From Solirubrobacteraceae bacterium (GTDB taxonomy: Bacteria; Actinomycetota; Thermoleophilia; Solirubrobacterales; Solirubrobacteraceae), in NCBI GenBank assembly GCA_017882375.1, contig JADGPP010000001.1, forward strand, positions 1-64,000: a DNA stretch of 64,000 bases, written 5' to 3'. Shown one piece after another: positions 6,146 to 58,813 of the stretch. Every line of letters starts with the position of its first letter. Within the stretch, counting starts at the first letter, position 1. The translations under genes and the position numbers were made by a program. Below the pieces are notes generated by a model. That model did no database searches. It saw nothing but the letters and a program-made list of their open reading frames with translations, and was not told the DNA's origin.

Positions 6146-7446
6146 TGGTTGCGTCCGACGTAGCAGAGCCTCCCTGGGAGGACCAGTTCGCGCTCGATGA
6201 CGCGAGCTACCGCGAGCAAGTCTCCTACGTTCTTCAGCGCTCGCCGTTCTACCGTCGCAAGCTCGCCGGGGCCGGGATAGAGTCGGCTGTCGATGCCGGG
6301 GGCCTGGAGCAGATCGCCCGCCTGCCGACGACCGACAAGCAGGAGCTCAAGGCCACAGCCACGCTCGAGAATCCGATCGGCGCGCATCTGTGCGCCTCTG
6401 ACTCGGAGATCGTCCGGATCTACTCGACCAGCGGCACGACCGGCACGCCCAGCTTCATCCCGCTGACCGCTTCCGATCTCGACAACTGGGTCACGGGTTC
6501 AGCGCGCAGCTACTCGGCCTCCGGCGTCGGTCGCGGTCAGCGACTGCTCTCGACCTACAACGCTGGGCCGTTCGTGGCCGGCGCGGCGCTTGCGGCATTC
6601 GACCGGATCGGCGTCTGCCACATCCCCGTTGGGACAGGCAACACCGACCGTGTGCTGCTGGCGATCGAGCGGCTCAGGCCCGAGGCCGTGGTGCTGACGC
6701 CGTCATACGCAGCGTACGTCATCGATGCCGCCGCGGAGGGTGGCGTCGACCTGGCCGGGTCCAGCGTAGAGCGCGTGCTGGTCGCCGGTGAGCCGGGCGG
6801 CGGCGAGCCGGCGTTCCGCTCGGCGCTCGAGCACGGGTGGGGAGCCAAGGTCACCGAGGCGATGGGCGTAGGCGACATCGGCCCGTCGCTGTTGGGGGAG
6901 TGCGAGGCGCAGGATGGGATGCACCTCTGCGCGCGCGGCTTCGTCCACGCCGAGTTGATCGAGCCCGACAGCGGCAAGGCAATCGCACTCAGCGAGGGAG
7001 CGGCCGGCGAGCTCGTCCTCACGCATCTACTCCATCGGGCCGCGCCGCTGTTGCGGTTCCGCACGCGGGATCACGTCCGGGTCCGGACTGGGCGATGCAC
7101 TTGCGGGAGGACCAGCCCGCGCATCCGCTGCATCGGTCGGACTGACGACATGCTGATAGTCCGCGGGATCAACATCTTTCCGTCGGCGGTGAGGGAGGTG
7201 GTCGCGAGCTTCCTCCCCAGCGTGAGCGGCTACATCCTCGTGCGGCCAGGGCAGCCGGGAGTGCGGCAGGATCCGCCGCTGCCAGTGACCGTGGAGCTCG
7301 CGCGCGGCGCAACGGCCTCGCCGACGCTCGCCCAGGCGATCGCCGAGCGCGTGCGCGCGGTGCTTGTCGTGCAGGCACGGGTGGACCTGGTGCCGTGGGG
7401 GAGCCTACAACGGAGCGAGTACAAGTCCAAGCTCATCGATCACTAG
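6145..7446 (+). CDS. Phenylacetate-CoA ligase family (PaaK-like) acyl-CoA ligase
   Basis: A 433-residue adenylate-forming enzyme of the PaaK subgroup, near the usual 430-440 residues. Visible motifs are the ATP-binding loop IYSTSGTTGTPSF, a middle motif EAMGVGDIGPSLLGEC, and RFRTRDHVRVRTGRCTCGRTSPR followed by GRTDDMLIVRGINIFPSAV at the hinge to the C-terminal domain. A cysteine-rich CTCG segment occurs in many PaaK relatives. The reaction would be acid + ATP + CoA to acyl-CoA + AMP + PPi, probably on an aromatic or other carboxylic acid. The ATG at 6145 shares one base with the upstream stop (TGATG), so translation is coupled; a TTG one codon earlier is also in frame. Confidence 0.85.
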   Translation: MVASDVAEPPWEDQFALDDASYREQVSYVLQRSPFYRRKLAGAGIESAVDAGGLEQIARLPTTDKQELKATATLENPIGAHLCASDSEIVRIYSTSGTTGTPSFIPLTASDLDNWVTGSARSYSASGVGRGQRLLSTYNAGPFVAGAALAAFDRIGVCHIPVGTGNTDRVLLAIERLRPEAVVLTPSYAAYVIDAAAEGGVDLAGSSVERVLVAGEPGGGEPAFRSALEHGWGAKVTEAMGVGDIGPSLLGECEAQDGMHLCARGFVHAELIEPDSGKAIALSEGAAGELVLTHLLHRAAPLLRFRTRDHVRVRTGRCTCGRTSPRIRCIGRTDDMLIVRGINIFPSAVREVVASFLPSVSGYILVRPGQPGVRQDPPLPVTVELARGATASPTLAQAIAERVRAVLVVQARVDLVPWGSLQRSEYKSKLIDH

Positions 7447-7461
7447 GGTGGAGGGGTGTCA

Positions 7462-8070
7462 ATGCGCAAGCTGCAGAGTCAGGGTGTTCACCACATCACG
7501 CTCGTCGCCGCCGACCGGCGGACGTCGATCGACTTCTGGGAGGGAGTGCTCGGGATGCCGTTCATCTTCGAACAGCCCAACCTCGACCGGCCAAGCGAGA
7601 ACCACCTCTACTTCGATCCGGGTGACGGGCGGCTGATCACGGTCTTCACCAACGAGGAGCGAGCACCGGATCCGGAGCGGGCCTCAACCGACCAGGGATG
7701 CGTGCACCACATGGCTTTCACACTGTCGCAGGCGACCTTCAACCAGGCGGTCGAGAGACTCGACGAGCGCGGGATCGACCACAGCGGCGTCAAGGACCGT
7801 GGCTTCATGGACTCGATCTACTTCAGCGACCCCCTGGGGCTGCTGATCGAGCTAGCGTCGTACAGGTTCGAGCCGCCGGCCGGCTTCACGCACGCCGACG
7901 TGCTGCTGGAGGCGCACAAGCTTCGCGTCGTGCGCGCGGACTATGCAATCGCCCAGATCCACCTCGCGGACGCGATCGAGCTCCTCACCGAGCGCTCGCG
8001 CGAGTCACTATCAGACGATCGGTCGCCGCGCGATCCGTATCGGCAATCCGACATCCCACAACACATCTAG
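7462..8070 (+). CDS. VOC-family ring-cleavage dioxygenase/glyoxalase-like protein
   Basis: A 202-residue vicinal-oxygen-chelate protein. The first beta-alpha-beta-beta-beta module begins GVHHITLVAADRRTSIDFW, and the second contains CVHHMAFTL and ends SDPLGLLIELASYRF. Conserved metal-ligand positions (His in VHH of each half, Glu in LIELAS) can be seen. Such proteins bind a divalent metal and act as extradiol dioxygenases, glyoxalases or hydrolases; the substrate cannot be told. GGAGGGG at 7449-7455 supports the ATG at 7462 over the GTG two codons upstream. It is the third gene of the catabolic operon, with a nine-base gap before the next. Confidence 0.82.
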   Translation: MRKLQSQGVHHITLVAADRRTSIDFWEGVLGMPFIFEQPNLDRPSENHLYFDPGDGRLITVFTNEERAPDPERASTDQGCVHHMAFTLSQATFNQAVERLDERGIDHSGVKDRGFMDSIYFSDPLGLLIELASYRFEPPAGFTHADVLLEAHKLRVVRADYAIAQIHLADAIELLTERSRESLSDDRSPRDPYRQSDIPQHI

Positions 8071-8079
8071 GAGCGCCAC

Positions 8080-8772
8080 ATGGCCGCGAACACGCTCAGC
8101 ATCCTGAAACCGAGTGTCAACAATCTGACCGTGCGTGTCTTCGTGCGGGCGGCCGGTCTTGACTTCGAGGAGGTCGATGTGTGGGGGAAGAAGGGCACCC
8201 CCGAGTTCCTGGCGAAGGATCCGGCCGACCTGACGCCGCTGCTCGAGGAGTCGGGCCTCCCGGACGGATCGCTGTGGGAGAGCTGCGCGATCATGCAGTA
8301 TCTCTGCAACAAGCACGGCCTCAGCCAGTTCTATCCAACCGAGCCGGGAGAGCGGGCGTTGGTGGACAGCGCCATGTTCTACCTGATCGGGACGTTGTAT
8401 CCGCTGGTGGCGCGCGCCACATATCCGATACTCGGGTTCCCTCAATACGCCGGCGAGGTTGGCCCCTCTGAGGCCGATGCCGAACTGAAAGCACGCGCGC
8501 AAAGTGACGCCGTGGCCGCGATCGCAGGGCCGCTTGACTCATACCGATCGTTCTTCCTCGAGGGGCGGCGATTCATCGGCGGGGATTCGCCGTCGATCGC
8601 CGACATCCGTCTGGTAGCGACGCTTGAGTTCCTCAATGCGATCGACTACGAGTTCCCGCCGTGGGCGACCGAGTACATGAGATCGGTCGAAAGCTCGCTC
8701 GGCGATGCCTACACGGAGCCGGCCGCCGACGTGCGGGACTTTCTCGCCTCGGTCAAGCCGTCGCACGCCTGA
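8080..8772 (+). CDS. Glutathione S-transferase family protein
   Basis: A 230-residue protein with an N-terminal thioredoxin-like domain and an all-helical C-terminal domain. The glutathione-site signature SLWESCAIMQYL (Glu-Ser contacting the gamma-glutamyl group) and the C-terminal N-capping motif PSIADIRL are clear. The usual proline-preceding loop reads ADLTPLLEE. Actinobacteria normally use mycothiol, so the thiol co-substrate is uncertain. Last in the operon, it may handle an electrophilic intermediate made by the VOC protein, or isomerise a ring-cleavage product as maleylpyruvate isomerases do; both roles are inferred from context. Confidence 0.85.
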   Translation: MAANTLSILKPSVNNLTVRVFVRAAGLDFEEVDVWGKKGTPEFLAKDPADLTPLLEESGLPDGSLWESCAIMQYLCNKHGLSQFYPTEPGERALVDSAMFYLIGTLYPLVARATYPILGFPQYAGEVGPSEADAELKARAQSDAVAAIAGPLDSYRSFFLEGRRFIGGDSPSIADIRLVATLEFLNAIDYEFPPWATEYMRSVESSLGDAYTEPAADVRDFLASVKPSHA

Positions 8773-56743: not shown

Positions 56744-56787
56744 CTGTACCGCTATGAAGTCCAAACTTGTACCGAGAGGTCGGTACA
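56744..56787 (+). repeat. Left inverted repeat of the ATPase unit
   Basis: CTGTACCGC, AGTCCA and TGTACCG-agaggt-CGGTACA; the last is itself a perfect 7-bp dyad. It ends two bases from the stop codon of the ATPase gene. Confidence 0.75.
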
Positions 56788-56789
56788 GG

Positions 56790-57989
56790 TCAATCGAGAG
56801 ACGCCTCAGGAGCCGACCGATCCGCGAGCGGGGATGCCCGTCGCAGCCACTCGCTGAAGAGCGGATCGACGACGTACCAGGTCCCGTCTCGGTGATCGAC
56901 GAGCCCGCGTCCTTGCAACCGCTCAAGCGCGGGTCGCACGCGGGAGTGGCTGGAAAATCCGTAGCGAGTCGCGACCGGTCGGCTGGTGACGTTTTCTCCG
57001 CCGCGATCGGCGAGCAGCTGTAGTGCGCGAACCTCATTCACCTCGCCCTCGTCTCCGCTCATCAGAACGTTGAGCACCGATGCGAACTCGGAACGCTCAA
57101 TCGTCTGCACAAGCCGATCGTGCGCCTCAATCACGGTGTCGAGCGTGACCGGCTTTCGCGCCGGAGTGCCCGACCAACACTCCCAGGCCAGTTGCTGGGT
57201 ACTGCGCGGGTGCGCGCGGGTCGCGTTGAGCAAGTGGTTGAGCGCGTCTTCGTCGGCTGGCTTGCCCGTCTGCTCAAACTGGAAGTCGAGATACTCGAGA
57301 AAGTCGATCCGGCTGATCGCCGGCAATTGCATCTGCGCCGCCTCGCCGAAGATCGGCTGCTCGGAGTTCTCGAGCATCATCTTGAGCGCGTTGCGGATGG
57401 AACCTGTGAAGACCAGCGAAACGTGATTAGCGCCCGAGCTCATGAGGGCCGAGCGGATGATCGCCAGCGGGTCGCCGGGGCAGTGCCTGAGCCGCTGAAA
57501 CTCGTCGAACACTACGACGAGATGCTCCGACAAAGAGCGCACCGCGAGGAGCTGTGCGTGCAGCGTCTCCGCATCCTGCGCGGGGCTGACCAGGGCGCTC
57601 TTCACGGAGCCCTTGATCACCTTGATGTCGAACCCGATTTCCTTCTCCAATACGCCGATCTGACGCTGGGCGGCCCGCCGGACGCTCTTCACCGGGTGGC
57701 TGGTCATCGCGTCGTGTACGCAGCCGATGAACCCGGGGATACTCACGACCCGCTGCAGGTTCACCTTGACGGCATCGAACGGCGGTGCGTCGGTTCCCTG
57801 CTTCTTCGCGAGCTCGAGCGCGAGTTGGTTGGTGAACGTGGTCTTGCCCGTGTCGCGTGGCCCGAACAGAGCCACGTTGGTCTGGCCCTTCAGTGTCAGC
57901 GCGACCTCGTTGGCGAACGCCTCCATCCCAACGATCTTCGACGGGTCGTCGAGCGGGCGGTCCCAGATAAACGGATTGAGTGCCGACAT
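56790..57989 (-). CDS. P-loop ATPase with C-terminal winged helix, orphan
   Basis: A 399-residue protein. Walker A is VALFGPRDTGKTTFTNQLAL (about residues 40-60), Walker B VVVFDEFQRL near 170, and a sensor region LVFTGSIRNAL follows, the pattern of STAND/archaeal-type AAA+ ATPases (as in Orc1/MNS-like 'archaeal ATPase' families). The C-terminal 110 residues (VLNVLMSGDEGEVNEVRALQ, SSHSRVRPALERLQGRGLVD, GTWYVVDPLFSEWLRRA) look like a winged helix. Such proteins are often found alone in mobile or accessory DNA with unknown role. Start ATG at 57989, eleven bases from the right repeat. Confidence 0.75.
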   Translation of the reverse strand: MSALNPFIWDRPLDDPSKIVGMEAFANEVALTLKGQTNVALFGPRDTGKTTFTNQLALELAKKQGTDAPPFDAVKVNLQRVVSIPGFIGCVHDAMTSHPVKSVRRAAQRQIGVLEKEIGFDIKVIKGSVKSALVSPAQDAETLHAQLLAVRSLSEHLVVVFDEFQRLRHCPGDPLAIIRSALMSSGANHVSLVFTGSIRNALKMMLENSEQPIFGEAAQMQLPAISRIDFLEYLDFQFEQTGKPADEDALNHLLNATRAHPRSTQQLAWECWSGTPARKPVTLDTVIEAHDRLVQTIERSEFASVLNVLMSGDEGEVNEVRALQLLADRGGENVTSRPVATRYGFSSHSRVRPALERLQGRGLVDHRDGTWYVVDPLFSEWLRRASPLADRSAPEASLD

Positions 57990-58000
57990 CGAGACTAGAT

Positions 58001-58044
58001 TGTACCACCTAGGCGGTACCGAACTGGACTGCTTGGCGGTACAG
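58001..58044 (-). repeat. Right inverted repeat of the ATPase unit
   Basis: Read from outside inwards: CTGTACCGC, AGTCCA, GGTACCG, GGTGGTACA. Lies in the promoter zone of the ATPase gene, so protein binding here could also regulate it. Confidence 0.75.
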
Positions 58045-58090: not shown

Positions 58091-58813
58091 TCAGACGATC
58101 TTGACGATGCCGCTGGCGATCTCGTAGACCGCCGCGACGACGCGCAGCTGACCGGCGGCGATCGCGGCGAGGATGATCGGCCCGCTGCCCGCCAGCAGAG
58201 CGGCCTGGCGGCGGGCGTTGGCGACGATCGAGTGCTCGAGCGTGCGTGCGGGTGGCGCCAGGCCTTCGATCGCCGGGACGACGGCCGCTACGACCTCGCC
58301 GATCGAGCCGTATTTGGAGGCCGGATAGGTCTTCCGCCCTTCGGCCACCTCGATCGCCGACTTCACCGCGCCGCAGTCGCTGTGGCCGAGGACGACGATC
58401 GCGTGCACGCCGAGCACGGCGATGCTGTACTCGAGGCTCCCGAGCGTGCCGGTGTCGATGCTGTTGCCGGCGACGTGCGCGGCGAACAGGTTGCCGCGTT
58501 CGACGTCGAAGACGAGCGGCGGCGAAACGCGCGAGTCCGCGCAGGCGAGGATCGCGGCGAACGGCTTCTGCGCGACGGCTCGGCGTTCGCCGACGGGCGA
58601 GTAGTCGCGCCGCTCCCAGCGCCCGCGGCGATAGCGCCTATTGCCCTCGACCAGGGCCCGCAGGGCGGCATCGGGCGTGGAGGGCCTGGCGTAGGCGGCG
58701 CGTGCGTCGACTGCGCCGAGCAGCTCGCCGCCGAGCAATGCGCCGCCGGTCGCGGCGCCGGCCCTGCCCAGGAACGCGCGCCGCGAGATCGGTGGCCGGC
58801 GGTCGCTGGACAC
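58091..58813 (-). CDS. Exported beta-carbonic anhydrase (Tat substrate)
   Basis: A 240-residue beta-class carbonic anhydrase. Zn ligands and active-site residues are in LACADSRVSPPLVFD (Cys91, Asp93, Arg95) and VVLGHSDCGAVKSAI (His144, Cys147). The N-terminus has a twin-arginine signal, ISRRAFLGRAGAATGGALLG, so the enzyme is probably folded in the cytoplasm and exported. It interconverts CO2 and bicarbonate outside the membrane. GTG start at 58813 directly follows the stop of the upstream quinone oxidoreductase gene, suggesting an operon. Confidence 0.92.
   Translation of the reverse strand: MSSDRRPPISRRAFLGRAGAATGGALLGGELLGAVDARAAYARPSTPDAALRALVEGNRRYRRGRWERRDYSPVGERRAVAQKPFAAILACADSRVSPPLVFDVERGNLFAAHVAGNSIDTGTLGSLEYSIAVLGVHAIVVLGHSDCGAVKSAIEVAEGRKTYPASKYGSIGEVVAAVVPAIEGLAPPARTLEHSIVANARRQAALLAGSGPIILAAIAAGQLRVVAAVYEIASGIVKIV

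What the first reader, a model, noticed from the sequence alone, without database searches (positions are those of the whole stretch)
56744..58044. Single-gene unit: P-loop ATPase between 44-bp inverted repeats
The ends match at about 30 of 44 positions, and each carries internal TGTACCG/CGGTACA dyads, so several identical half-sites lie at both gene borders. Either it is a mobile unit mobilised in trans (only an AAA+ protein, no transposase), or the ATPase/winged-helix protein binds these sites on both sides of its own gene and holds it in a loop. Neither arrangement is one I recognise from known element classes.
Basis: partly seen in the sequence, partly recalled or inferred. Interest (0 to 1): 0.65.

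Follow-up and report, generated by a model that had tools for sequence, protein, structure and literature searches.

The report
Mobile one-gene ATPase unit
A 1.3-kb piece of DNA holding one ATP-using, DNA-binding protein gene turns up at unrelated places in about a dozen related soil bacteria, bordered by the same paired sites on both sides; the protein probably reads these sites itself, but the enzyme that cuts and moves the DNA is not in the unit and is unknown.

Summary
The unit (56745-58043) is bounded by imperfect inverted repeats (30/44 positions). Alone they barely beat chance, but they recur on both sides of the gene in seven elements from Solirubrobacterales-type genomes, and degraded in three more. 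Each end is two 20-bp dyads TGTACC-N8-GGTACA with a 24-bp period. Units are 1287-1308 bp. DNA similarity stops at the ends and flanks are unrelated. Distribution is patchy (12/146 family genomes, one of them only a 48% homologue; one copy in another family). One congener carries two copies, fragments and stand-alone ends. Mobility is well supported.

The protein is a COG1672-like AAA+ ATPase with a winged helix and no recognisable nuclease. Half of the distant homologues tested carry similar, gene-specific dyad arrays, only upstream. The recognition helix is invariant in TGTACC members and changed where half-sites changed. Best reading: the ATPase binds its own sites, represses its promoter, and doubled operators serve as element ends.

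Not shown: an empty site, a target duplication, the recombinase, or binding itself. No partner element with these ends was found in 146 family genomes, so 'mobilised in trans by a look-alike element' lacks positive support.

The parts
56790..57989 (-). Gene of the 399-aa AAA+ ATPase with C-terminal winged helix (Walker A GPRDTGKT, Walker B VVVFDEFQ, helix GFSSHSRV); stop codon at 56790-56792
   Evidence: ORF; Pfam AAA_14/AAA_22 and weak HTH matches; family alignment; Ka/Ks 0.09-0.34 among intact homologues
58001..58043 (-). 5' end of the unit (gene-start side): outer degenerate dyad 58025-58043, inner dyad 58001-58020
   Evidence: Ends alignment and profile
56745..56787 (+). 3' end of the unit (gene-stop side), read inward: outer degenerate dyad 56745-56763, inner dyad 56768-56787; 2 bp from the stop codon
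   Evidence: Ends alignment and profile
57999..58004 (-). TACAAT, likely -10 box overlapping the innermost half-site of the 5' end (inferred)
   Evidence: Read directly; TACAAT at the same place in G006, G023, G047, G330 copies

Best explanation
A minimal single-gene mobile unit whose two ends are doubled copies of the encoded ATPase's own DNA-binding sites. Shown: the boundaries and their conservation, occurrence at unrelated sites, multiple copies and stand-alone ends in one congener, no recognisable nuclease domain, no DDE transposase among the neighbouring genes scanned, and no partner element with the same ends in 146 family genomes. Inferred: dimers of the ATPase bind the dyads through the winged helix, which represses the promoter inside the 5' end and brings the two ends together in an ATP-dependent complex. 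A DNA-cutting or recombining enzyme not encoded in the unit then moves it.
For: Ends conserved with the gene in seven elements. Similarity stops at the ends, flanking genes differ everywhere. Unit 1287-1308 bp; stop codon 1-5 bp from the 3' end. Patchy distribution, one carrier in another family. G006: two copies 94% identical, decayed pieces, stand-alone 44-bp ends. Half-sites identical but 5 spacer changes between the 5' ends of the two G006 copies. Nine of 18 distant homologues have tandem dyads upstream only, with lineage-specific sequence, above all 43 control ORFs. Recognition helix GFSSHSRV invariant in (T)GTACC members, changed in G047, G111, G014 whose half-sites differ. In the window the neighbours on either side of the region are directly adjacent in 17 congeners.
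Against: No clean empty site; a carbonic anhydrase gene also lies in the window insertion. No target duplication above chance. Low copy number in most genomes. No binding data. In G014 TGTACC arrays occur without this ATPase, one of them 180 bp upstream of a different, DUF234-type ATPase, which weakens the claim that only this protein reads the site. Part of the helix/half-site agreement could be shared descent, since the three exceptions are also the more divergent proteins.
Confidence: 0.5

Rival explanations
1. Non-autonomous cassette of the mobile insertion cassette (MIC) kind: the ATPase is a passenger and a transposase from a full element with the same ends moves it in trans.
For: Inverted-repeat ends and no transposase inside; mobility; solo ends in G006.
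Against: No element with the same ends and a transposase in 146 family genomes; no target duplication; the ATPase gene is the constant part of every complete unit, whereas a passenger should vary; dyads in front of distant, apparently non-mobile homologues tie the sites to the ATPase itself.
Confidence: 0.15
2. Not a mobile element: an autoregulated accessory gene spread by ordinary horizontal transfer within islands; the second operator behind the gene serves repression by DNA looping, and similarity ends at the dyads only because they are the last constrained bases.
For: Upstream-only operators in distant homologues; single copy in most genomes; no target duplication; some copies in island-like or tRNA-bounded settings; neutral flanks would not be recognisable at this divergence.
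Against: Neighbouring genes differ in every carrier, the unit has constant size, the G006 copies 94% identical do not share their flanks beyond the ends (except a short match and repeat R), and stand-alone ends exist.
Confidence: 0.25
3. A mobile replication-initiation unit: an Orc1/Cdc6-like initiator with its binding sites on both sides of its gene.
For: AAA+ plus winged-helix arrangement; weak similarity to the orc1/cdc6 model TIGR02928 (E 0.09); the archaeal AAA+ ATPase SSO1545 is described as a structural relative of Cdc6/Orc1 (PMC4599002). That SSO1545 belongs to the COG1672-type family is my own recollection.
Against: The model match is far below its cut-off. No close relative on plasmid or phage records. 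No AT-rich unwinding stretch in the few bases between dyads and codons.
Confidence: 0.04
4. IS200/IS605-like or REP-like element whose hairpin ends are processed as single strands in trans.
For: Dyad ends, no target duplication, no transposase inside.
Against: The spacers inside the dyads do not covary as a hairpin stem would, except at the central pair of the outer dyad; two dyads per end at fixed 24-bp period fit double-strand binding better.
Confidence: 0.04

Closest known systems
Mobile insertion cassettes (MIC231, mic-qnrD)
   Same: Single-gene cassette between inverted repeats, no transposase gene (definition in PMC3913671)
   Different: No partner insertion sequence with the same ends found, no target duplication, the gene is always the same and probably reads the ends itself
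One-gene insertion sequences with the promoter inside the terminal repeat (general knowledge)
   Same: Compact 1.3-kb unit, one gene, promoter and binding sites in the end next to the gene start
   Different: The protein is an AAA+ ATPase, not a transposase; no catalytic nuclease recognised; no target duplication
COG1672 / PF01637-type AAA+ ATPases with winged helix
   Same: Domain order, Walker motifs and winged helix; widespread 'ATP-binding protein' family
   Different: Distant relatives tested have dyads only upstream of the gene; here they flank both sides and the unit is at unrelated sites
ATPase helpers of transposition (IstB, TnsC, MuB, TniB; general knowledge)
   Same: AAA+ ATPase linked to DNA ends that contain several sites each
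   Different: Those act with a DDE transposase in the same element, and there the transposase reads the ends; none is present here
Autoregulated toxin-antitoxin modules
   Same: Tandem inverted repeats over the promoter for autoregulation, patchy distribution, decay
   Different: Single gene, no toxin partner, dyads also behind the gene

Membership tests
Mobile element in general | Discrete conserved boundaries with unrelated flanks in different genomes | tested here: met
Mobile element in general | More than one copy or remnants at different places in one genome | tested here: met
   G006: two copies, decayed pieces and solo ends; other carriers have one
Mobile element in general | Empty site in a close relative | tested here: inconclusive
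   17 congeners lack the unit at the window locus but also a carbonic anhydrase gene; two other loci gave no usable empty site
Mobile insertion cassette (MIC) | Inverted-repeat ends and no transposase gene inside | tested here: met
Mobile insertion cassette (MIC) | A full insertion sequence with the same ends that acts in trans | tested here: not met
   Ends profile over 146 family genomes finds no such element
Mobile insertion cassette (MIC) | Target site duplication (usual) | tested here: not met
   None above chance in seven elements
Insertion sequence (DDE type) | Transposase gene | tested here: not met
   Only AAA+ and HTH matches
COG1672/PF01637-type AAA+ ATPase family | Walker A, Walker B and C-terminal winged helix in one about 400-aa chain | tested here: met
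   PF01637 itself matches only weakly (E 0.018), AAA_14 at its cut-off; predicted structure confident only for the C-terminal part
IS200/IS605 | End hairpins kept by base-pair covariation | tested here: not met
Orc1/Cdc6 initiator with origin boxes | Autonomous replication from the sites | not testable with these tools
   needs an experiment
Autoregulated gene | The protein binds its own promoter dyads | not testable with these tools
   Only indirect support

The most novel reading that the evidence does not exclude
The AAA+ winged-helix protein is itself the mobility protein of a new class of one-gene elements: it reads both ends, pairs them with ATP, and recruits a host nuclease, replication or repair enzyme instead of encoding a transposase. 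The class would have arisen by copying an ATPase gene's promoter operator to the other side of the gene.
Probability: 0.2. Interest if true: 0.85.

Novelty: new variant of a known kind. Interest (0 to 1): 0.58.

Why it matters
If confirmed, this would be a mobile unit without its own DNA-cutting enzyme whose ends are the operators of its only gene. It would suggest one way an ordinary autoregulated gene becomes mobile: duplicate the operator to the far side. It also hints at a role for a common uncharacterised AAA+ family, whose members here often carry private tandem dyads in front of their genes, which makes DNA recognition by these proteins directly testable.

Tried and rejected
Cruciform or single-strand hairpin ends: spacer covariation absent except at the central pair of the outer dyad. 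Target duplication: none above chance. Partner element with the same ends: none in 146 genomes. Viral or plasmid origin: no relatives in the viral contigs; only 21-25% identical proteins in 4 plasmid records and 1 phage-labelled record. Defence system: PADLOC matches weak and partial. Clean empty site: sought at the window locus, at the S30A1 tRNA-Val locus and at the G330 locus; none clean. Structure-based search: the model was too poor over the ATPase part (mean pLDDT 55), so no fold search was run; PDB sequence search gave only P-loop and HTH noise. Concerted evolution of the two ends of one element: slight excess, about 2% by permutation over all positions and not significant for spacers, so not used as an argument. 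Literature: no description of such an element, or of autoregulation in this ATPase family, found in the open library; that library lacks most subscription papers.

Full report
What is there. The window carries one gene (56790-57989, minus strand, 399 aa) bounded by two 43-bp ends at 58001-58043 and 56745-56787. Taken alone this is hardly above shuffled sequence (32 against at most 30), so the real test was conservation.

Conservation. A search of 100 related genomes found close homologues. Six further elements have both ends in full: G006, G023, G030, G026, G156 and G330. All ends align to one 44-column consensus, two dyads TGTACC-N8-GGTACA with a 4-bp linker, so the half-sites repeat with a 24-bp period. 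G330, from another family of the class, has the most regular ends. The second half-site counted from outside is the weakest at both ends. G159 has a rearranged 3' end, G047 degenerate ends, and G111 (64% identical) a TGTAGC dyad.

The unit. In the seven full elements the length is 1287-1308 bp. The first in-frame start lies 4-10 bp inside the 5' end in six of them; in G330 the first in-frame start codon falls inside the end itself and the homologous start lies about 20 bp inside. The stop lies 1-5 bp inside the 3' end, except in G026, whose gene is frameshifted. DNA similarity between carriers ends at the dyads, and neighbouring genes differ in every genome. In several copies the 3' dyads face convergent genes or a tRNA gene, so there they are not promoters of the next gene.

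Mobility. Carriers are scattered: 12 of 146 family genomes match at E 1e-30, one of them only by the 48% homologue without 3' dyads, and 11 of 399 in a class sample. A phylum sample gave only genomes of the same family. G006 holds two copies 94% identical on one contig (L061). A second contig (L114) has decayed gene pieces, one 3' end with about 50 bp of gene left, and two stand-alone ends. Several copies are broken (G026, G007, G157, G006 copy 2), while intact ones are under purifying selection, Ka/Ks 0.09-0.34, with synonymous sites near saturation in many pairs. In the window, the uracil-DNA glycosylase gene and the quinone oxidoreductase gene on either side of the region are direct neighbours in 17 congeners; here the unit and a carbonic anhydrase gene lie between them. 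That is an insertion locus but not a clean empty site. No target duplication exceeds chance.

Who reads the ends. Among 18 distant homologues (about 21-48% identical) nine have tandem dyads with a 22-23 bp period just upstream of the gene, with sequence that differs between lineages; 43 control ORFs never score as high, and the downstream sides that could be measured show nothing. The natural reading is a private operator for each ATPase. Within the mobile clade the recognition helix GFSSHSRV is invariant in the seven aligned members with (T)GTACC sites and altered in G047, G111 and G014, whose half-sites differ; these three are also the more divergent or degenerate copies, so this is support, not proof. 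The 5' ends of the two G006 copies differ at five positions, all in spacers. The inner half-site runs into TACAAT, a likely -10 box, in several copies. So the 5' end looks like promoter plus operator, and the 3' end like a second copy of the operator. Binding itself was not tested.

Who moves it. The protein has AAA+ and winged-helix signatures only, though the predicted structure was poor over the ATPase part. A profile of the ends, run over 146 family genomes, finds them only at this ATPase, at G006 remnants, and as two arrays in G014, besides three marginal partial hits; 136 genomes have none. The neighbouring genes scanned around seven elements contain no DDE transposase; one copy has a tyrosine integrase 1.2 kb away. 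Trans mobilisation by a look-alike element is therefore unsupported, and the cutting enzyme is unknown.

Verdict. A mobile single-gene unit whose ends are most likely the ATPase's own doubled operators; confidence 0.5 for the whole statement, higher for boundaries and mobility, lower for the mechanism. It resembles mobile insertion cassettes but fails two of their features as tested here (partner insertion sequence, target duplication), and it resembles one-gene insertion sequences but lacks a transposase, so it is filed under neither.

Noticed in passing
L115 6725-6790 (G014:C40, inside nadE): Two and a half 24-bp repeats GGTACC-N8-GGTACA-N4 lie in frame in a length-variable loop of the NAD synthetase gene; congeners lack them. 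Solo end or unrelated tandem repeat.
   Followed up: partly
L116 6419-6486 and gene 6669-8084 (G014:C50): A three-dyad TGTACC array with 24-bp period lies 180 bp upstream of a different, DUF234-type ATPase in a genome without the TGTACC unit.
   Followed up: partly
L114 about 140, 1604, 2308, 3837, 5998, 7817 and L061 912-1010, 4101-4169 (G006): A 100-200 bp dispersed repeat alternates with small toxin-antitoxin-like genes, integron-array-like, and adjoins three of the unit's 3' ends. Nature unknown.
   Followed up: partly
L066 7593-14662 (G014:C50): The 48% homologue with GCTAGC dyads upstream sits just before what looks like a Cas4-Cas1 fusion gene and a long array of about 72-bp repeats, apparently a CRISPR locus.
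   Followed up: no
L063 8180-8223 and 9858-9930 (Conexibacter sp. S30A1): The degenerate copy lies between a 44-bp duplicate of the tRNA-Val 3' part and the tRNA-Val gene, like an island bounded by attachment sites; similar tRNA-Val fragments are common in that genus.
   Followed up: partly
L062 1568-3609 (G023:C58): Two other AAA+ ATPase genes in tandem end 59 bp before the unit.
   Followed up: no
window 58091-58813: A carbonic anhydrase gene lies with the unit between genes that are adjacent in congeners; its own origin is unexplained.
   Followed up: no
CAJCHW010000095.1 (L068 = G006:C95): The public record is titled 'Chlamydiae bacterium' but the genome tool places the same assembly in the window's genus; probably mislabelled.
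   Followed up: no
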